In this document: in pieces, positions 12,596-23,657 of the stretch | Layout of the letters: each line of letters begins with the position of its first letter | Numbering within the stretch: position 1 is the stretch's first letter | NCBI GenBank assembly: GCA_036562265.1 | Contig: DATCKS010000024.1 | Span: forward strand, 1 to 26,984 | Direction of reading: 5' to 3' | Length of the DNA stretch: 26,984 nucleotides | Source: DASVDK01 sp036562265 [NCBI: Thermodesulfobacteriota bacterium] | GTDB lineage: Bacteria; DASVDK01 | The notes under the pieces: model-generated | What the model saw: only the letters and a program-made list of their open reading frames with translations | Database searches by the model: none | Told to the model about the DNA's origin: nothing | Position numbers and translations under genes: made by a program

Positions 12596-12874
12596 ATGCC
12601 CATCTTCGAGTACCGCTGTCACCAGTGCGGTCGTCGCTTCGAGACGTTGCTGTCGCGGGCGGAGGCGGAGGCCGCCCAGCCCTGCCCCGCGTGCGGCGCC
12701 GCGGTGGGGGGCAAGGACCGCCCGCAAGACCGCCTGCTCTCGGTGTTCGCCGCCACGGGCGGCGCCGAGCGCGAGTGCGCGGCGCCGCTGCCGATGGCCG
12801 GCGGCTGCGGGCAGGGGGCCTGCTGCGCCACGGGGCCGGGCGGCGGTTTCGGCGGCGGGTGCGCGACCTCGTAG
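12596..12874 (+). CDS. FmdB-family zinc-ribbon protein
   Basis: This 92-residue protein begins with the family signature MPIFEYRCHQCGRRFETL and has a second pair in PCPACG, so four cysteines form a zinc ribbon in the first 40 residues. The tail is unusually rich in glycine and cysteine (GGCGQGACCATG and GGGCATS), which could bind metal. FmdB proteins are small putative regulators first seen near formamidase and amidase genes; their true role is not settled. It precedes the Sec-DsbA gene by 40 bases on the same strand, and the GAGAGGACG stretch upstream can serve as the ribosome site. Confidence 0.85.
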   Translation: MPIFEYRCHQCGRRFETLLSRAEAEAAQPCPACGAAVGGKDRPQDRLLSVFAATGGAERECAAPLPMAGGCGQGACCATGPGGGFGGGCATS

Positions 12875-16018: not shown

Positions 16019-16062
16019 TTGACCTGCACGCTCGGTTAGAGTAAGAATAGTTGGATTCTTAC
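16019..16062 (+). promoter_or_regulatory. vapBC promoter with inverted-repeat operator
   Basis: TTGACC (16019-16024) and TAAGAA (16042-16047) are 17 bases apart. The perfect inverted repeat GTAAGAAT (16041-16048) and ATTCTTAC (16055-16062), with AGTTGG between, covers the -10 and the likely start of transcription. This is the standard place for binding by the antitoxin, or by the toxin-antitoxin complex, to repress its own operon. Confidence 0.65.
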
Positions 16063-16077
16063 CGACCGAGGTTTGCC

Positions 16078-16308
16078 ATGCGAGTAACCGCCAAGGGCCA
16101 GGTGACGATCCCGCAGGCCATCCGGGAGCAGGTGGGGCTCCTGCCGGATACGGAGGTCCAGTTCGAGGTCGTCGGTGATGTCGTCCAGATCCGGAAGGTG
16201 AGGGGGGCTCGGACGCGTGGGCGGGCCATCGTCGACCGACTGCGTGGCAAGGCGACCGCGGGGCTGACTACCGACGAGATCATGGCGCTCACTCGCGGCG
16301 AACCGTGA
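16078..16308 (+). CDS. AbrB/SpoVT-type antitoxin (VapB-like)
   Basis: The 76-residue protein starts with the swapped-hairpin AbrB fold: RVTAKGQVTIPQAIREQVGL, then EVQFEVVGDVVQIRKV. The C-terminal part (about 50-76), ending GLTTDEIMALTRGEP, is the usual region that wraps the PIN toxin. It should neutralise the next gene's product and repress the operon through the inverted repeat upstream. The ATG at 16078 lies just before the conserved MRVTAKGQ. The toxin start overlaps its stop by four bases. Confidence 0.92.
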   Translation: MRVTAKGQVTIPQAIREQVGLLPDTEVQFEVVGDVVQIRKVRGARTRGRAIVDRLRGKATAGLTTDEIMALTRGEP

Positions 16309-16709
16309 ACGCCGTCCTCGTCGACAGCAACGTCCTCCTGGACGTCCTCACGCGGGACGTGCGCTGGTACGAATGGTCGTCCCAGGCGATTGCGCGCGTG
16401 GGGTCCGAGTCGATTCTCGTCATCAACCCCGTCGTCTACGCCGAGGTCTCCGTCGGGTTCCTGCGGATCGAAGAGGTGGACGACGCGCTCGCTCCCGAGG
16501 TCTTCCGTCGCGAGGCGCTCCCCTGGGACGCGGCGTTCCTCGCCGGCAAGGCCTTCGCCATGTATCGCCGGCGCGGAGGCCTTCGCACGTCGCCGCTCCC
16601 CGACTTCTTCATCGGCGCACACGCAGCCGTCCGGGGCATGACGCTGCTCACGCGCGACGCCACGCGCTATCGCACGTACTTTCCGAAGCTCTCCCTGCTC
16701 GCCCCCTGA
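16305..16709 (+). CDS. PIN-domain ribonuclease toxin (VapC-like)
   Basis: The 134-residue protein has the PIN nuclease pattern. Acidic residues D7 (VLVDSNVLLDVL), E47 (VVYAEVSVGF), D100 (SPLPDFFIGAHA) and D118 (LLTRDATRYRTYFP) would bind magnesium or manganese. Such toxins cut specific tRNA or rRNA when the antitoxin is degraded; the target here is unknown. GTG at 16305 overlaps the antitoxin stop (GTGA). Codon use is a little less GC-biased than in neighbours, which would fit transfer but is weak evidence. Its 3' end overlaps the convergent PilZ gene by 43 bases. Confidence 0.92.
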   Translation: MNAVLVDSNVLLDVLTRDVRWYEWSSQAIARVGSESILVINPVVYAEVSVGFLRIEEVDDALAPEVFRREALPWDAAFLAGKAFAMYRRRGGLRTSPLPDFFIGAHAAVRGMTLLTRDATRYRTYFPKLSLLAP

Positions 16710-17589: not shown

Positions 17590-18315
17590 TCACCTCGGGT
17601 GCCGTCCGGTGCCTGAAGCATCCGTTGCAGCGACCGGTTCGCGCTCCGGAGCGGCCAGGGCGCGCTCGAGTCCTCGGCGCGCCTCGACGAGGTGCTCCGC
17701 CATGGCGGCGCGGGCGGCGGCGGCATCGCGGGCGGCGATGGCGGCGGCGATCCGCCGGTGGCCGCGAGCCGCCGCGCCGAGGCCCATGCGGAGGGTCGCC
17801 GCGCGCTCGGCGCGCAGCAGGTCGCCGAGCGGGGCGAGGATGAGCGCCACGACGCGGTTGTGAGACGCCCGCATCACCGCCTCGTGGAAGGCCAGGTCCG
17901 CCCCCACCGGGTCGGACGCCGTCTCGAGCGCCTCCGCCGCCCGGGCGATCGCGTCGACCTCCTCGGCGGTGGCCCGCTCGGCGGCGGCGGCGGCCACGGC
18001 CGGCTCGAGCATCATCCGCACGTCCCAGATGTCGCGCAGGACGCCCGCGTCGCTGCGGATGCGCGCGGCGAGCGCGTCGCCGAGGTTCGGATCGGGGGCG
18101 TCGCGCACGACGACCCCGACGCCGCGGCGCACCTCGACCAGTCCGCGCGCGGCGAGGATGCGGGTCGCCTCGCGCACGACCGACCGGCTCACGCCGAACC
18201 GCTCGACGAGCCGCGGCTCGGCCGGCAGGAAGGCGCCGGCCGAAAGCCGCCCCGCGCGGATCTCCTCGGCGAGGACCGAGGCCACCTCCTCGGGCAGCGG
18301 TCTGCGCGCCACCAT
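17590..18315 (-). CDS. GntR-family transcriptional regulator, FCD (FadR) subfamily
   Basis: The 241-residue protein has an N-terminal winged helix (about 6-70: LPEEVASVLAEEIRAGRL, FLPAEPRLVERFGVSRSVV) and a C-terminal FCD ligand domain (about 95-220: RDIWDVRMMLEPAVAAAAAE, ADLAFHEAVMRASHN) whose histidines would bind a metal that holds a small organic acid. FCD regulators such as GlcC and LldR sense glycolate, lactate and similar compounds. It diverges from the Sec-ArsC/glcDEF operon and is its likely controller, with tandem GACGTCT repeats between them as the site. The ATG at 18315 lies one base after GGAGG; the GTG at 18312 is a slightly better spaced alternative. The 119 bases between it and the PilZ gene hold nothing I can identify. 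Confidence 0.9.
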   Translation of the reverse strand: MVARRPLPEEVASVLAEEIRAGRLSAGAFLPAEPRLVERFGVSRSVVREATRILAARGLVEVRRGVGVVVRDAPDPNLGDALAARIRSDAGVLRDIWDVRMMLEPAVAAAAAERATAEEVDAIARAAEALETASDPVGADLAFHEAVMRASHNRVVALILAPLGDLLRAERAATLRMGLGAAARGHRRIAAAIAARDAAAARAAMAEHLVEARRGLERALAAPEREPVAATDASGTGRHPR

Positions 18316-18353: not shown

Positions 18354-18373
18354 GACGTCTGACGTCTGATGTC
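18354..18373. promoter_or_regulatory. Tandem GACGTCT repeats (candidate GntR operator)
   Basis: GACGTCT occurs at 18354-18360 and again at 18361-18367, and a degenerate third copy, GATGTC, follows at 18368-18373. The first copy with the preceding A forms the palindrome AGACGTCT. The site covers the expected start of transcription of the glc operon, a good place for a repressor. Binding by the adjacent FCD regulator is inferred. Confidence 0.5.
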
Positions 18374-18406: not shown

Positions 18407-18769
18407 GTGGCGCGCATGACGTTCTACTGGAAGCCGGGCTGAACCGGCTGCCGGAACGCGAAGGAGTTTCTTTCGCAGGTCAAAGCGGACGTCGAGGTGC
18501 GGGACCTCTTCAAGGCCCCGCTCACGCTCGAGGAGATCAAGGACCTCTCCGCGCGCGTCGTCGAGGGAGACCTCCTGTCGCGCCGCACGGCGGAGCTCAA
18601 GACGTACGGCATCGACCCGAACGCGCCGGTCACGGCGAAGACGATGGCGCTCATGGCGAAGGAGCCGCGGCTTCTGCGCCGCCCGATCCTCGACACGGGG
18701 CGCGAGGTGATCGTCGGTTTCGATCGGGCCCGCTACGCGGCGCTCTTCGAGAAGAAGAAGAAAGGGTAA
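18407..18769 (+). CDS. ArsC/Spx-like thioredoxin-fold protein, probable selenoprotein (UGA = Sec12)
   Basis: From GTG 18407 (GGAGG six bases upstream; ATG 18416 is the alternative) the frame reads VARMTFYWKPG, then TGA at 18440-18442, then TGCRNAKEFLSQVKADVEV and on to TAA at 18767-18769. The ArsC/Spx family has a catalytic cysteine at this point, often CxxC, so the TGA gives U12-T-G-C15. The rest is intact: RDLFKAPLTLEEIKDL, the lysine-rich middle, and the MAKEPRLLRRPIL and VGFD segments near the end that family members share. A stem-loop at 18458-18476 fits a SECIS. The product of 120 residues has normal family length and is probably a cytoplasmic redox enzyme. Being first in the glcDEF operon suggests a role with that oxidase. 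Naive calling would start it at 18497 and lose the active site. Confidence 0.88.
18458..18476 (+). promoter_or_regulatory. Candidate bacterial SECIS element of the ArsC-like gene
   Basis: GCGAAGG (18458-18464) pairs with CTTTCGC (18470-18476) over seven bases, one of them G-U, leaving the loop AGTTT (18465-18469). The loop starts 22 bases after the UGA and has a G in its first two positions, as bacterial SECIS elements usually do. It lies wholly in the coding frame. Confidence 0.7.
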
Positions 18770-18773
18770 CGTC

Positions 18774-20231
18774 ATGGACGTGCGGCGTATCGCCGGCCGG
18801 CTCGCCGCCATCGTGGGGCCGGACGCCGTCATCGTCGACCCGGACGAACTCACGGCCTACGAGTGCGACGGCCTCACCGGCTTCAAGCACCCGCCCGACC
18901 TCGTCGTGCTGCCGGGAACGGCCGAAGAGGTCCAGGCGGTCGTGCGCCTCTGCAAGGAGGAGGGGATCGTCTTCATCCCCCGCGGCGCCGGCACCGGGCT
19001 CTCCGGCGGCTGCCTGCCGGTCGAGGGGGGCATCATGATCGGCCTCTCGCGCATGATGTCCATCGTGGAGATCGACATCCCCAACCAGCGCGCCGTCGTC
19101 CAGCCGGGCGTCGTGAACCTCTGGCTCTCGGAAGCGCTCGCCCCCTACGGCTACTACTACGCGCCCGACCCCGCCTCGCAGAAGGCCTGCACCATCGGCG
19201 GCAACGTCGCCGAGAACTCGGGCGGCCCCCACTGCCTGAAGTACGGGGTCACGACGAACCACGTCCTGGGTCTCGAGGTGGTCCTGCCCGACGGCGAGCG
19301 CCTCCACCTCGGCGGCCGGGCCAGCGACGCGCTCGGCTACGACCTGGTGGGCGCCTTCGTCGGGTCCGAGGGGACCTTCGGCGTGGTGGTCGAGGTCGAG
19401 GTCCGCATCCTCAAGAAGCCCGAGGCGGTGAAGACGGTGCTGGCGGTGTTCGACGAGATGGACGACGCCTCGCGCGCCGTCTCGGGGATCATCGCCGCCG
19501 GGATCATCCCGGCCGCCATCGAGATGATGGACAACCTCTCCATCCAGGCGGTGGAGGCGGCCGTGAACGCCGGCTACCCGACCGACGCCGGCGCGGTGCT
19601 GCTCGTCGAGCTCGACGGGCTCGCCGCCGGACTCGGCGCGCAGACGGCGGTCATCGAGCGGGTCCTGCGCGACTGCCGCGTCCGCGAGATCCGGGTCGCG
19701 CGGGACGAGGCCGAGCGGGCCCTCCTCTGGAAGGGGCGCAAGAACGCCTTCGGCGCGATGGGGCGCATCAGCCCGGACTACTACGTGCAGGACGCCGTGA
19801 TCCCGCGGACCCGGCTCTTGCCGATCCTGCGCGTCGTCGAGGAGGCGGCCGCGCGGCAGGGGCTCAGGGTCGCCAACGTCTTCCACGCCGGCGACGGCAA
19901 CCTGCACCCGCTCGTCCTCTACGACAACAGCCAGCCGGGCCAGCTCGAGCGCGCCGTCGCCGCCGGCGCCGACATGATGCGCGCCTGCATCGAGGCCGGC
20001 GGCAGCATCACCGGCGAGCACGGCGTCGGCATCGAGAAGATGGACTTCATGCCGCTCATGTTCAGCGAGGCCGACCTCGACGCCATGCGCAAGCTCCGGG
20101 CGGTCTTCAACCCGGACGGCCGGATGAACCCGGGCAAGATCTTCCCCACCTCGCGCGCCTGCGGCGAGGTGGCCTCGTCCCACCGCGCGCCGCACCCGAT
20201 CGAGGCGGCGGGCCTGGCGCAGCGGTTCTAG
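18774..20231 (+). CDS. glcD: Glycolate oxidase, FAD-binding subunit GlcD
   Basis: This 485-residue flavoprotein of the FAD-linked oxidase family oxidises glycolate or a related 2-hydroxyacid (for example D-lactate) and passes electrons to the iron-sulfur subunit. The FAD-binding domain (about 40-215) has PDLVVLPGTAEEVQAVVRLC, the pyrophosphate loop PRGAGTGLSGG at 69-79, and ASQKACTIGGNVAENSGGPH. The C-terminal cap has HAGDGNLHP (about 370) and GEHGVGIEK (about 415-423), then FNPDGRMNPGKIFPT. It starts four bases after the selenoprotein stop, so the two are co-translated. Glycolate is favoured by the three-gene glcDEF arrangement and the FCD regulator; lactate is possible. Confidence 0.93.
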   Translation: MDVRRIAGRLAAIVGPDAVIVDPDELTAYECDGLTGFKHPPDLVVLPGTAEEVQAVVRLCKEEGIVFIPRGAGTGLSGGCLPVEGGIMIGLSRMMSIVEIDIPNQRAVVQPGVVNLWLSEALAPYGYYYAPDPASQKACTIGGNVAENSGGPHCLKYGVTTNHVLGLEVVLPDGERLHLGGRASDALGYDLVGAFVGSEGTFGVVVEVEVRILKKPEAVKTVLAVFDEMDDASRAVSGIIAAGIIPAAIEMMDNLSIQAVEAAVNAGYPTDAGAVLLVELDGLAAGLGAQTAVIERVLRDCRVREIRVARDEAERALLWKGRKNAFGAMGRISPDYYVQDAVIPRTRLLPILRVVEEAAARQGLRVANVFHAGDGNLHPLVLYDNSQPGQLERAVAAGADMMRACIEAGGSITGEHGVGIEKMDFMPLMFSEADLDAMRKLRAVFNPDGRMNPGKIFPTSRACGEVASSHRAPHPIEAAGLAQRF

Positions 20232-20243
20232 AGGAGCGATTCC

Positions 20244-21632
20244 GTGTCCACGGCAGCGGCTGGACGTGAGACGCAGGCGCCCGATCCGGCGCGCCTCGAG
20301 GCCCGTGTGGCGGAGGTCCTCGGCCGCGACGCGGTGGCGCCGCGGGCCGATCGGCCCCGGTACGCCGTCGACGGCGTCGTGCCGGCGGTGGTGGCGCGGC
20401 CGGCGACGATCGAGGAGCTGTCGGCCCTCCTGCGGGTGGCGACCGAGATGAAGGCCGTCGTGGCGCCCTTCGGCGGCGGCACGAAGCAGTCGCTCGGCGC
20501 GACTCCGGCGCGGGTCGACCTCGTGGCGAGCGTCGAGCGGATGAACCGGGTGCTCGAGCACGAACCGGCCGACCTCACGGCGACGTTCGAGGCCGGCATC
20601 CGCCTGGCCGACGCGAACGCCCACCTCGGGCGGGCGGGCCAGTGGCTCGCCCTCGACCCGCCGCACGGCGACCGGGCGACGCTCGGCGGCGTGCTCGCCA
20701 CCAACGCGAGCGGCCCCTCGCGGCTCCGGTACGGCACGGCGCGCGACCACGTGATCGGCATCCGCGTCGTGCACGCCGACGGGACGATCACCAAGGGCGG
20801 GGCGAAGGTCGTCAAGAACGTCACCGGGTACGACATGAACAAGCTCTACATCGGGTCGCTCGGCACGCTCGCGGTGATCGCCGAGGCGACGGTCAAGCTC
20901 CACCCGAGGCCGGCCGAGGAGCGGACCTGGGTGGTCGACATGCCGAGCCTCGAGGTGGCCGGCAGCCTCGTCGCCAGGGTGCTCGACGCCTCCCATCTCC
21001 TGCCGACCGCGATGGAGATCGTCTCGGGAGGGGCGGCCCGCGCGCTGCCGGACTTCTCGGCGTTGCCGGATGGCCGGGTCCTCGTCGCCATGGCCTTCGG
21101 CGGGATCGCCGACGAGGTCGCCTCGCAGGTCGTCGCCGTCCGCGACGCGGCCGCGGGGCTCGGCGTGCGGCACGACCGGCTGCTCGACGGCGAGCCGCAG
21201 GCCGCCTTCTGGGAGGCCGTGCGCAACGCGCCGGCGCGTCTGGCCGCCGACGGCCGGACCTGGGCGATCGCCAGGGCCGCGCTCGTCATCACGGCGGTGC
21301 CGTCCTTCCTCGCGGCCGCCGAGTCGATGCGCACGGCGCACGGCCTCGCCGACGTGGTCGCGACGGCCGAGGCGGGCAGCGGCTCGGCTCGCGTGGCGCT
21401 CTGCGGCGAGCCGGCGGCGCTCGTCGCGGCGCTCGGCGAGCTGCGCGAGGTGGCGCGATCGGGCGGCAGGAACGCCGGCCACCTCGTGGTCGAGTCGGCG
21501 CCGCCGGCCGTGAAGGGGGCCGTCGACGTCTGGGGCCCCGTGGGGCCGTCGCTCAGGCTCATGCGAGCGCTCAAGGCGCAGTTCGATCCCGACGGGCGGC
21601 TCAACCCGGGGCGCTTCGTGGGAGGGATCTAG
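20244..21632 (+). CDS. glcE: Glycolate oxidase, FAD-binding subunit GlcE
   Basis: The second FAD-linked oxidase subunit has 462 residues, somewhat longer than usual for GlcE. The FAD site includes APFGGGTKQSLG (about 72-83) and DPPHGDRATLGGVLATNASG, with KVVKNVTGYDMNKLYIGSLG after it, a stretch typical of GlcE. The C-terminus ends with the family phrase FDPDGRLNPGRF. In known systems GlcD, GlcE and GlcF are all needed for activity. GTG 20244 has GAGGAG upstream and lies 12 bases after glcD. Its stop shares one base with the glcF start. Confidence 0.92.
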   Translation: MSTAAAGRETQAPDPARLEARVAEVLGRDAVAPRADRPRYAVDGVVPAVVARPATIEELSALLRVATEMKAVVAPFGGGTKQSLGATPARVDLVASVERMNRVLEHEPADLTATFEAGIRLADANAHLGRAGQWLALDPPHGDRATLGGVLATNASGPSRLRYGTARDHVIGIRVVHADGTITKGGAKVVKNVTGYDMNKLYIGSLGTLAVIAEATVKLHPRPAEERTWVVDMPSLEVAGSLVARVLDASHLLPTAMEIVSGGAARALPDFSALPDGRVLVAMAFGGIADEVASQVVAVRDAAAGLGVRHDRLLDGEPQAAFWEAVRNAPARLAADGRTWAIARAALVITAVPSFLAAAESMRTAHGLADVVATAEAGSGSARVALCGEPAALVAALGELREVARSGGRNAGHLVVESAPPAVKGAVDVWGPVGPSLRLMRALKAQFDPDGRLNPGRFVGGI

Positions 21633-22990
21633 TGGCCACCGCCGAGACGACACGACCCGCCAGGCCCGGCTTCGACGAGATCGACCCCCCCTCGCGCGAG
21701 AAGATCCTCGACTGCGTCCACTGCGGCCTCTGCCTGCCGACCTGCCCGACCTACGTCGCGCTGGGCACGGAGATGGACTCGCCGCGCGGCCGCATCTACC
21801 TGATCCGGCAGGTCCAGGAGGGCAAGCTCGGCATCACCGACAGCTTCGTCAAGCACATGTACACGTGCCTCGTCTGCCGCGCCTGCGAGACCGCCTGCCC
21901 CTCGGGCGTGCAGTTCGGCTCGCTCATGGAGCGGGCGCGCGGTCAGATCGAGCGTCACTACCGGCGGCCGCTTCCCTCGCGGCTCGCGCGCTGGTTCGGC
22001 TACGCCGTCGTGCTGCCCAACCCGAGGGTCCTCGGCGCGCTCGTCACGCTGATCGGCCTCTACCAGCGGAGCGGCCTTCGGGCGCTCGTCCGCAAGACCG
22101 GGCTCGTCAAGCTCTTCGGCGCGAAGAACGCCCAGCGGGAGGCGCTCCTGCCCGACGTGCCGCCCCCGGCCGACCGGCGGCCGCTGCCGGAGTTCACGGC
22201 CGCGAAGGGGGAGCGGCGCGGAAAGGTGGCGCTCCTGGCCGGCTGCGTCATGCGGGAGGTCTTCCAGGCCACCAATCGCGCCACGATCCGGGTCCTCTCC
22301 GAGAACGGGTGGGACGTGGTCGTGCCGCGCGACCAGGGGTGCTGCGGCGCCCTCCACGTCCACGAAGGCGAGCTCGAGCGGGGCAAGGCGCTCGCCCGGC
22401 GCGACATCGCGGCCTTCGAGGCGGCCGACGTCGACTACGTGGTGACCAACGTCGCGGGTTGCGGCTCCGTCATGAAGGAATGGGGGGAGCTCTTCGAGCA
22501 CGACCCCGAGTGGGCGGAGCGGGCCAAGCGCGTCGCGGCCCGGGTGCGCGACGTCACGGAACTCCTCGCGGCCTTTGGCCCGCTCAGGGGCCGGCTCGGC
22601 CGGCTCGATCTCACCGTCGCCTACCACGAGCCGTGCCACCTCGCCCACGCCCAGAAGGTCCGGCAGGAGCCGCGCGAGGTCCTCAGGCAGATCCCGGGTG
22701 TCACGCTCACCGAGATCCGCGAGAGCGACTGGTGCTGCGGCTCGGCCGGCGTGTACAACGTCGTTCACCCCGACCTCTCCATGCGGATCCTCGACCGGAA
22801 GATGTCGCGCGTCGGCGAGGTGAAGGCCGACGTCCTGGCCACCGGCAACCCGGGCTGCCTCATCCAGATCGGCAAGGGGATGGCCCGGGTCGGGCTTCGG
22901 ATGCCGGTCGTGCACCCGGTCGACCTCCTGGCGCGCGCCTACGAGGCGGGCGACGGCGCGGCGGCAGCAGGGGCGCGCTTCGACGCCTAG
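21632..22990 (+). CDS. glcF: Glycolate oxidase, iron-sulfur subunit GlcF
   Basis: This 452-residue subunit carries two 4Fe-4S clusters of the ferredoxin type, C28-x2-C31-x2-C34-x3-C38 and C79-x2-C82-x2-C85-x3-C89, each followed by proline. Two CCG domains follow: GCVMREVF with QGCCGALHVHEG (about 204-245), and YHEPCHLAH with WCCGSAGVYN and GNPGCLIQIG (about 330-410). The CCG cysteines probably bind further iron-sulfur clusters. It takes electrons from the flavin subunits, probably to the quinone pool. GTG 21632 overlaps the last base of the glcE stop, and GGAGGG lies upstream. Confidence 0.94.
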   Translation: MATAETTRPARPGFDEIDPPSREKILDCVHCGLCLPTCPTYVALGTEMDSPRGRIYLIRQVQEGKLGITDSFVKHMYTCLVCRACETACPSGVQFGSLMERARGQIERHYRRPLPSRLARWFGYAVVLPNPRVLGALVTLIGLYQRSGLRALVRKTGLVKLFGAKNAQREALLPDVPPPADRRPLPEFTAAKGERRGKVALLAGCVMREVFQATNRATIRVLSENGWDVVVPRDQGCCGALHVHEGELERGKALARRDIAAFEAADVDYVVTNVAGCGSVMKEWGELFEHDPEWAERAKRVAARVRDVTELLAAFGPLRGRLGRLDLTVAYHEPCHLAHAQKVRQEPREVLRQIPGVTLTEIRESDWCCGSAGVYNVVHPDLSMRILDRKMSRVGEVKADVLATGNPGCLIQIGKGMARVGLRMPVVHPVDLLARAYEAGDGAAAAGARFDA

Positions 22991-23126: not shown

Positions 23127-23657
23127 ATGCGCCTCCCGACCGTGCTCGCCGCCATGCTGCTCGTCGCCTGCATGCCGGCGACCGCCCGGTCCGAGGACGG
23201 GCCGGTGGGCGTGGTCGCCCGGGCCGTGGAGGCGATGGCGCCGGAGGCGGTGGCGGTCCCGGGCGGCTTCCGGTTCGCCGTCGACGACGTGGTCGTCTCC
23301 GTCCTGACCGACGACGACGCCGGCCTCCTGCGCGTGGTCGCGTGGGACAGCGACCTCGGCGACCCGGACGTCCGGCTCGTCGCCAAGGCCCTCTCCTCGG
23401 ACATGCTGCCCGACCTCGGCGCTCGCCTGGTGTCCGTGCGGGGGCTCCTCTGCGCCGCCGTGCTCGCCCCGCTACGGGGGCTCACCGACGCGCGCTTCCG
23501 CGGCACCGTCGACGGGGTGGTCCGGATGGCGCGCGAGGCGGCGGCCCAGATGTCGGTCCAGGCGGCAGCCGTCGGGGCGCCCCTGCTCGATCGAGGGACG
23601 CCCGGACTCGCGATTCCGGTCAACTTGCCGGTCCACTCGAGGCCCGCTTCGCGCTAG
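23127..23657 (+). CDS. Exported hypothetical protein (possible lipoprotein), 176 residues
   Basis: The protein has an N-terminal export signal: one arginine, then LPTVLAAMLLVAC, where L-V-A-C15 matches a lipobox. Without lipidation, cleavage could fall after ATARS. The mature part is a mixed alpha/beta chain rich in valine and aspartate (DDVVVSVLTDDDAGLLRVVA), then a helical section with MAREAAAQMSVQAAAVG. It ends in a basic tail. I recognise no family. ATG 23127 has GAGGAG 11 bases upstream. It may be co-expressed with the small membrane protein 10 bases downstream, though that has its own -10 box. Confidence 0.7.
   Translation: MRLPTVLAAMLLVACMPATARSEDGPVGVVARAVEAMAPEAVAVPGGFRFAVDDVVVSVLTDDDAGLLRVVAWDSDLGDPDVRLVAKALSSDMLPDLGARLVSVRGLLCAAVLAPLRGLTDARFRGTVDGVVRMAREAAAQMSVQAAAVGAPLLDRGTPGLAIPVNLPVHSRPASR

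What the first reader, a model, noticed from the sequence alone, without database searches (positions are those of the whole stretch)
18407..18769. Second in-frame UGA: ArsC/Spx-like protein with UTGC active site, probable selenoprotein
TGA at 18440-18442 sits at the catalytic cysteine position (U12-T-G-C15), and the ArsC-like fold is complete downstream including the conserved RRPIL segment. A seven-pair stem-loop (18458-18476, loop AGTTT) lies 22 bases after the UGA. Two independent UGA codons both landing on redox cysteines with suitable hairpins make chance or sequencing error very unlikely.
Basis: partly seen in the sequence, partly recalled or inferred. Interest (0 to 1): 0.9.

Follow-up and report, generated by a model that had tools for sequence, protein, structure and literature searches.

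The report
Selenocysteine version of ArsC/Spx-like protein

Summary
Frame 18407-18769 has one in-frame UGA (18440-18442) as the U of a U-T-G-C motif in an ArsC/Spx-type protein. All 3 genome contigs relatives (32-46% identity) have UGA at the same codon. So do 27 of 30 Chloroflexota loci read (one of them already among the 3) and 2 more from Methylomirabilota; the other 3 have Cys. The hairpin 18458-18476 is ordinary as a single fold (z -0.60) but covaries. A covariance model trained without the window scores it 47.1 bits (next best 14.7).

SelB passes its cut-off in 41 of 41 UGA-form Chloroflexota genomes. The window's own genome is not held, so its Sec machinery is untested. A second UGA redox gene (DsbA-like, UPWC) lies in the window.

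Nearest solved relatives are Spx, then ArsC-family proteins. The protein passes no NCBIfam cut-off (ArsC, Spx or selenoprotein models). UxxC ArsC-type selenoproteins were reported in 2008. Most likely it is a thioredoxin-linked selenol reductase of unknown substrate. It lies 4 bases upstream of glcDEF-like genes; the nearest Methylomirabilota relatives also lie beside a glcDEF-like cluster, but apparently a paralogous one.

The parts
18407..18769 (+). Selenoprotein gene: ArsC/Spx-like, 120 residues with Sec at codon 12, stop TAA at 18767-18769
   Evidence: Translation; Pfam ArsC 45.2 bits; homologues with UGA or Cys at the same codon
18440..18442 (+). In-frame UGA read as selenocysteine (U12 of U-T-G-C)
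   Evidence: Same codon is UGA in the 3 genome contigs relatives, in 2 more Methylomirabilota loci and in 27 of 30 Chloroflexota loci read; Cys in the other 3
18458..18476 (+). Bacterial SECIS-type hairpin: 7-pair stem, loop AGTTT
   Evidence: Covariation; synonymous-codon control z 6.5 over 32 sequences; model built without the window gives 47.1 bits
18396..18400 (+). Probable ribosome-binding site GGAGG, 6 bases before GTG 18407
   Evidence: Read from the sequence; inference
18774..20231 (+). Neighbour, glcD-like FAD-linked oxidase, 4 bases downstream; probably co-transcribed
   Evidence: Pfam; best NCBIfam models are GlcD but below their cut-offs; spacing
20244..21632 (+). Neighbour, glcE-like FAD-linked oxidase
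   Evidence: Pfam; GlcD/GlcE models below cut-off
21629..22990 (+). Neighbour, glcF-like iron-sulfur protein with CCG domains
   Evidence: Pfam; GlcF model 322 bits, cut-off 333
17590..18315 (-). Divergent neighbour, GntR/FCD-type regulator
   Evidence: Pfam GntR and FCD

Best explanation
The gene encodes a genuine selenoprotein. Ribosomes starting at GTG 18407 meet UGA at codon 12; SelB carrying Sec-tRNA and bound to the hairpin at 18458-18476 decodes it as selenocysteine. The product is a 120-residue thioredoxin-superfamily protein of the ArsC/Spx type with a U12-x-x-C15 redox pair and the conserved R92-P93 of this family. Most likely it is a selenol reductase: Sec12 attacks an oxidised substrate, Cys15 resolves the adduct as a selenenyl-sulfide, and a thioredoxin/thioredoxin-reductase system regenerates it. 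Shown here: homology on both sides of the UGA, Sec or Cys at the site in relatives, a covarying hairpin, Sec machinery in relatives. Inferred: decoding in this organism, the chemistry, the partner and the substrate. The confidence given is for the selenoprotein identity; for the thioredoxin-linked reductase role I would say about 0.6.
For: UGA at the same codon in the 3 genome contigs relatives, in L011 and L012 and in 27 of 30 Chloroflexota loci read, Cys in the other 3. Columns 12, 15, 22, 92 and 93 invariant over 35 rows. Stem covaries: 25 cells with changes on both sides against 10.8 in shuffles over all 32 sequences, 22 against 6.9 in the 21 that use this stem. Pairing beyond what the protein requires: z 6.5. 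Model built without the window finds it first by a wide margin. SelB in 41 of 41 UGA-form Chloroflexota genomes against 24 of 34 genomes without a homologue; tRNA-Sec in 5 of 5 UGA-form genomes tested. Confident Trx-type model nearest to Spx and ArsC-family structures. Thioredoxin reductase gene 0.8-0.9 kb downstream in the three nearest Methylomirabilota relatives.
Against: Single-sequence folding is ordinary, and synonymous controls of total energy are weak (mean z -0.46, 21 of 32 negative). 11 of 32 UGA sequences do not form this stem, and the 5 of these that were scored get only 15.8-21 bits from the model, no more than Cys forms. The 3 Cys sequences have as many stem pairs on average (4.67 of 7) as the 32 UGA ones (4.62), although their own protein-based expectation is higher (4.00 against 3.52). 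Two covariation measures do not beat shuffles clearly. In Methylomirabilota, 3 of the 35 genomes with a UGA-bearing match lack a SelB over cut-off, in draft assemblies. The window's own genome is not held. No thioredoxin reductase was identified in the window.
Confidence: 0.93

Rival explanations
1. The same selenoprotein acts as a Spx-like redox switch that binds RNA polymerase, with a selenenyl-sulfide in place of the disulfide, rather than as an enzyme.
For: Best solved relatives by sequence are Spx and Foldseek ranks Spx chains first. U12 and C15 align with the CxxC of Spx. It lies beside a catabolic gene set and a GntR/FCD regulator.
Against: Below the cut-offs of TIGR01617 (58.1 against 75.05) and of the Spx models. 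An ArsC-family protein, 3gkx, has an equally high TM-score (0.82 against 0.81). No polymerase contact was tested. Spx function is established in Firmicutes (recalled).
Confidence: 0.12
2. The same selenoprotein is an arsenate reductase of the glutaredoxin-dependent ArsC type.
For: Pfam ArsC over cut-off; E. coli ArsC among the solved relatives by sequence and by fold.
Against: TIGR00014 30.8 bits, cut-off 106. Weaker match than Spx. No arsenic-resistance gene was recognised among the window genes annotated here, not an exhaustive annotation. The known ArsC selenoproteins listed under TIGR00014 are UxxS, not UxxC.
Confidence: 0.12
3. The UGA is a true stop, a sequencing error or a mutation in an ordinary CxxC gene or pseudogene, and the downstream frame is a remnant or a separate short gene.
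For: Cys forms of the family exist. The mechanical ORF list gives a 90-residue frame from GTG 18497. The single-sequence fold is ordinary.
Against: The same UGA in relatives of 32-48% identity from at least two phyla, and a covarying hairpin.
Confidence: 0.03

Closest known systems
Spx/MgsR family (TIGR01617; Spx structures 1z3e, 6ghb, 3l78)
   Same: Fold, a redox pair at the same place, nearest solved relatives by sequence; relatives L001, L003, L011, L045 and L054 pass TIGR01617
   Different: The window protein itself is below the cut-off (58.1 against 75.05); Sec replaces the first Cys; polymerase binding untested
NF041106, ArsC family (seleno)protein, UxxC
   Same: ArsC-type protein with UxxC; a member (L015) carries UGA at the aligned place and the same hairpin position
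   Different: Window scores 33.2, cut-off 85; separate branch in the tree
'Arsenate reductase 2' of the Global Ocean Sampling survey (cd03032, UxxC, 42 Sec sequences; PMC2398784, passages seen)
   Same: UxxC ArsC-type selenoprotein; cd03032 is, as I recall, the Spx subfamily
   Different: A later review (PMC13188914) lists an arsenate reductase-like UxxC protein credited to that survey under NF041106; which group its 42 sequences belong to was not tested here
Arsenate reductase selenoproteins with UxxS (TIGR00014; PMC1088965, PMC13188914)
   Same: ArsC family, Sec at the catalytic Cys
   Different: UxxS rather than UxxC; TIGR00014 cut-off not met (30.8 against 106)

Membership tests
Bacterial selenoprotein | In-frame UGA aligned with Cys or Sec of homologues | tested here: met
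Bacterial selenoprotein | SECIS-type hairpin just downstream of the UGA | tested here: met
   Covariation and model; the single-sequence fold alone is not significant
Bacterial selenoprotein | SelB, tRNA-Sec, SelA and SelD in the same genome | not testable with these tools
   No genome held for the window. SelB and tRNA-Sec tested only in relatives; SelA and SelD not searched
Bacterial selenoprotein | Selenium in the purified protein | not testable with these tools
   Bench experiment
Pfam ArsC family (PF03960) | Score over the gathering cut-off of 24 | tested here: met
   45.2 bits
TIGR01617 Spx/MgsR family | Score over 75.05 | tested here: not met
   58.1 bits; some relatives pass
NF041106 ArsC family (seleno)protein | Score over 85 | tested here: not met
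   33.2 bits
TIGR00014 arsenate reductase (glutaredoxin) | Score over 106.05 | tested here: not met
   30.8 bits
Spx regulator | Binding to the RNA polymerase alpha C-terminal domain | not testable with these tools
   Fold resemblance only

The most novel reading that the evidence does not exclude
A selenocysteine form of a Spx-like redox switch that couples the redox state of the cell to expression or activity of the glycolate/lactate-type oxidation genes beside it; the same kind of linkage, with apparently paralogous glc genes, is found in the nearest Methylomirabilota relatives.
Probability: 0.07. Interest if true: 0.65.

Novelty: new member of a known kind. Interest (0 to 1): 0.32.

Why it matters
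Standard gene calling stops at the UGA and loses the active site: the mechanical list gives only a 90-residue frame from 18497. The four NCBIfam selenoprotein models that hit the protein (NF041106, NF041212, NF041211, NF045501) all stay below their cut-offs, so members of this Spx-like Sec group may well be mis-annotated. The group holds Sec and Cys forms in one alignment, which makes Sec-to-Cys exchange and its effect on the hairpin testable. If the neighbourhood matters, it would link selenium to 2-hydroxyacid oxidation.

Tried and rejected
Chance, true stop or sequencing error: rejected on homologues and covariation. Membership in NF041106: rejected on score, although that family has a hairpin at the same place. 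Folding energy as proof of a SECIS: gave little.

A conserved glcDEF operon: first looked conserved in G001, G065 and G066. One search shows that G065 and G066 hold another GlcD nearer to the window's (63%) than the ArsC-linked one (52%), and other genomes of the phylum reach 66%. For G001 only the linked copy (55%) was listed. So the linkage is apparently with a paralogue. In 21 Chloroflexota regions (L086-L106, 4.8-19 kb) no glcD, glcE or glcF match at 1e-8 was found.

Placing the window in a phylum: fumarase best 65% in 400 Chloroflexota genomes and 58% in 95 Methylomirabilota genomes. GlcD best 66% over its full length in Methylomirabilota, not searched in Chloroflexota. The tree puts the window beside the Cys forms L047 and L060 with support 91/80, which is not a starred branch, on a long branch. 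Unresolved. Viral contigs: 29 stretches, none confirmed. Rfam on the window: nothing over gathering scores. A composition scan for further UGA genes passed only 18440; it missed the DsbA-like gene, so it is not exhaustive.

Rows dropped: alignment A3 keeps 21 of 32 UGA sequences. Eight closely related Chloroflexota rows (L054, L059, L062, L063, L065-L068) plus L002, L049 and L056 were left out after I saw that they lack this stem; the full set is. The eight carry AAGGCC-CGTGC-GGCCTT a few bases earlier (alignment); I did not test that for covariation. L040 repeats L003, and L010 repeats L001. Of the 41 Chloroflexota genomes with one TGA, 27 were read; for the other 14 the TGA is the tool's count. 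G328 and G353 (no stop inside the match) were not read. The tool scored at most 11 candidates per genome, so matches there are a lower bound.

Full report
OBSERVATION. The frame 18407-18769 (+) is open except for TGA at 18440-18442 and gives 120 residues with U at position 12, then TAA. With Cys for U it matches Pfam ArsC (45.2 bits, residues 7-112) and glutaredoxin (30.8 bits). In NCBIfam the best models are Spx/MgsR TIGR01617 (58.1 bits, cut-off 75.05), Spx PRK01655 (57.1, cut-off 123) and nitrogenase-associated TIGR01616 (55.9, cut-off 109). NF041106 gives 33.2 (cut-off 85) and TIGR00014 30.8 (cut-off 106.05). None of the 18 models listed passes its cut-off. The stem-loop is at the stated coordinates, but its energy is ordinary: z -0.60, 55 of 200 shuffles as good.

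CONSERVATION. One scan of genome contigs gave 3 relatives, one Methylomirabilota and two Chloroflexota. All 3 have TGA at the same codon: PTUTSC, SRUSTC, PTUSTC. In 95 Methylomirabilota genomes 51 matched. The closest matches, in G001, G065 and G066 (44-48%), each contain one TGA, at the same codon. A more distant UGA group (YHRPGUKSC type) belongs to NF041106: its member L015 scores 138.4 bits. A third ArsC-like group has no TGA. By my count of the table, 35 of the 51 genomes have a TGA-bearing match of one group or another; not all were read. In 400 Chloroflexota genomes a six-sequence profile matched 46, 41 with one TGA and 5 with none. Of the 30 best loci read, 27 are UxxC and 3 are CxxC (L047, L050, L060); one of the 27 repeats L003. 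Over 35 rows, columns 12, 15, 22, 92 and 93 are invariant, U counted as C.

HAIRPIN. The stem formed by bases 16-22 and 28-34 after the UGA was tested on all 32 UGA sequences of the window's group. 71.4% of cells pair, against at most 57.1% with slid partners; 25 cells have changes on both sides, against 10.8 in shuffles. Two other measures do not stand out: 4 pairs with changes on both sides (333 of 500 shuffles reach this) and 11 further pair types (68 of 500). In the 21 sequences that use this stem, chosen after looking, the figures are 89.8%, at most 63.3%, and 22 against 6.9, with the same two measures weak (61 and 63 of 500). Against synonymous recoding that keeps every protein, mean pairs of 7 are 4.62 against 3.52 (z 6.5) in the 32, 6.14 against 5.29 (z 5.1) in 22 sequences of the more distant UGA groups, and 4.67 against 4.00 (z 1.1) in the 3 Cys sequences. 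The Cys mean is thus no lower than the UGA mean, and three sequences cannot settle whether Cys forms have lost the stem. The same kind of control on total folding energy is weak: mean z -0.46, -0.68 and +0.59.

A covariance model from 20 sequences without the window finds 18440-18484 at 47.1 bits, next best 14.7 in the window. In 17 other loci it gives 31.7-44.7 bits for 9 of 9 members of the more distant UGA groups, 22.2, 21.9 and 9.4 for the Cys forms, and only 15.8-21.0 for the 5 tested UGA sequences that do not use this stem. A model of sequence alone gives 35.7 bits for the window, run with default filters, so shared coding sequence carries most of the score and pairing adds to it.

MACHINERY. 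No genome is held for the window. SelB passes its cut-off in G001, G002 and G003. In Methylomirabilota it passes in 83 of 95 genomes: by my count in 32 of the 35 with a UGA-bearing match and in 51 of the other 60, which is little contrast. Among the 35, G059 and G007 have no match at that threshold and G050 has a fragment below the cut-off. In Chloroflexota it passes in 41 of 41 UGA-form genomes, in 45 of 46 with any homologue (the exception is G282, a Cys form), and in 24 of 34 without one. Those 34 were the first handles in order, not a random draw. tRNA-Sec passes in the 5 UGA-form genomes tested and in one Cys-form genome (G326), and not in two others (G282, G398), where only 150 candidates each were scored. 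SelA and SelD were not searched. The window has a second UGA gene, DsbA-like with UPWC. Its relatives were found in 62 of 95 Methylomirabilota genomes, most rows with at least one TGA, positions not read.

WHAT IT IS. AlphaFold gives a good model (mean pLDDT 86.5, pTM 0.75). Foldseek ranks Spx chains first by E-value (1z3e, TM 0.81), with ArsC-family proteins next (3gkx, TM 0.82; E. coli ArsC about 0.71). By sequence the top six solved relatives are Spx. U12 and C15 fall on the CxxC of Spx. The best-supported reading is a thioredoxin-superfamily selenol reductase with a Sec-Cys pair. In the nearest Methylomirabilota relative a thioredoxin reductase gene (TIGR01292, 402.6 bits, cut-off 343.45) lies about 0.8 kb downstream, and matches to it (75.6% and 79.5%) lie 0.8-0.9 kb downstream in the other two. 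That fits a thioredoxin-linked cycle, but it is inference. Arsenate reduction and polymerase regulation are kept as rivals.

CONTEXT. The gene ends 4 bases before glcD-, glcE- and glcF-like genes and is divergent from a GntR/FCD regulator. The glc names are the best NCBIfam models, all below their cut-offs. In L001, L084 and L085 the homologue also lies downstream of glcDEF-like genes and of lactate-utilisation-like genes. The glcD there is apparently a paralogue of the window's. No such linkage was seen in 21 Chloroflexota regions. The link is suggestive, not established.

KNOWN WORK. All from search listings and passages, no paper read whole. PMC1088965 lists arsenate reductase selenoproteins with UxxS. 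PMC1794560 lists ArsC-like selenoproteins. PMC2398784 lists 'Arsenate reductase 2', cd03032, UxxC, 42 sequences. PMC13188914 lists arsenate reductase UxxS (TIGR00014), an arsenate reductase-like UxxC protein under NF041106 and a DsbA-like UxxC protein, and mentions a Methylomirabilota assembly with 63 predicted selenoproteins. That cd03032 is the Spx subfamily is recalled. Whether the 2008 sequences belong to the window's group or to NF041106 was not tested. A full-text search for Spx with selenoprotein or selenocysteine showed no paper on a bacterial Spx selenoprotein among the 12 listed of 2,546. So the kind is known, and this is a new member, in a group that no NCBIfam selenoprotein model captures above cut-off for this protein.

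VERDICT. A real selenoprotein, confidence 0.93; a known kind; substrate unknown.

Noticed in passing
Its downstream fold is ordinary as a single sequence (z -0.55) and the ArsC-group model barely sees it (5.8 bits), but many Methylomirabilota relatives also contain TGA.
   Followed up: partly
12596-12874: FmdB-type zinc-ribbon protein (Pfam Zn_ribbon_8) with ordinary Cys codons, just before the DsbA-like gene; FmdB is listed among predicted selenoprotein families (PMC2398784).
   Followed up: no
18354-18373: Tandem GACGTCT GACGTCT GATGTC between the divergent GntR/FCD gene and the selenoprotein gene; possible operator, read from the sequence.
   Followed up: no
16051-16709: Two small overlapping frames that look by eye like an AbrB/MazE-type antitoxin and a PIN-domain toxin (translations; motifs recalled, no family search).
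   Followed up: no
23127-23657: Frame of 176 residues after the glcF-like gene with no Pfam match at 0.001.
   Followed up: no
L001:10025-10069 and NF041106-type loci such as L015:1516-1560: Two separate UGA groups of ArsC-like proteins (29-30% identity between the window and L014/L015) keep a hairpin at the same distance from the UGA; common descent or convergence was not tested.
   Followed up: partly
L054, L059, L062, L063, L065-L068, just after the UGA: Eight closely related Chloroflexota UGA sequences lack the common stem and carry AAGGCC-CGTGC-GGCCTT a few bases earlier, perhaps a shifted SECIS.
   Followed up: no
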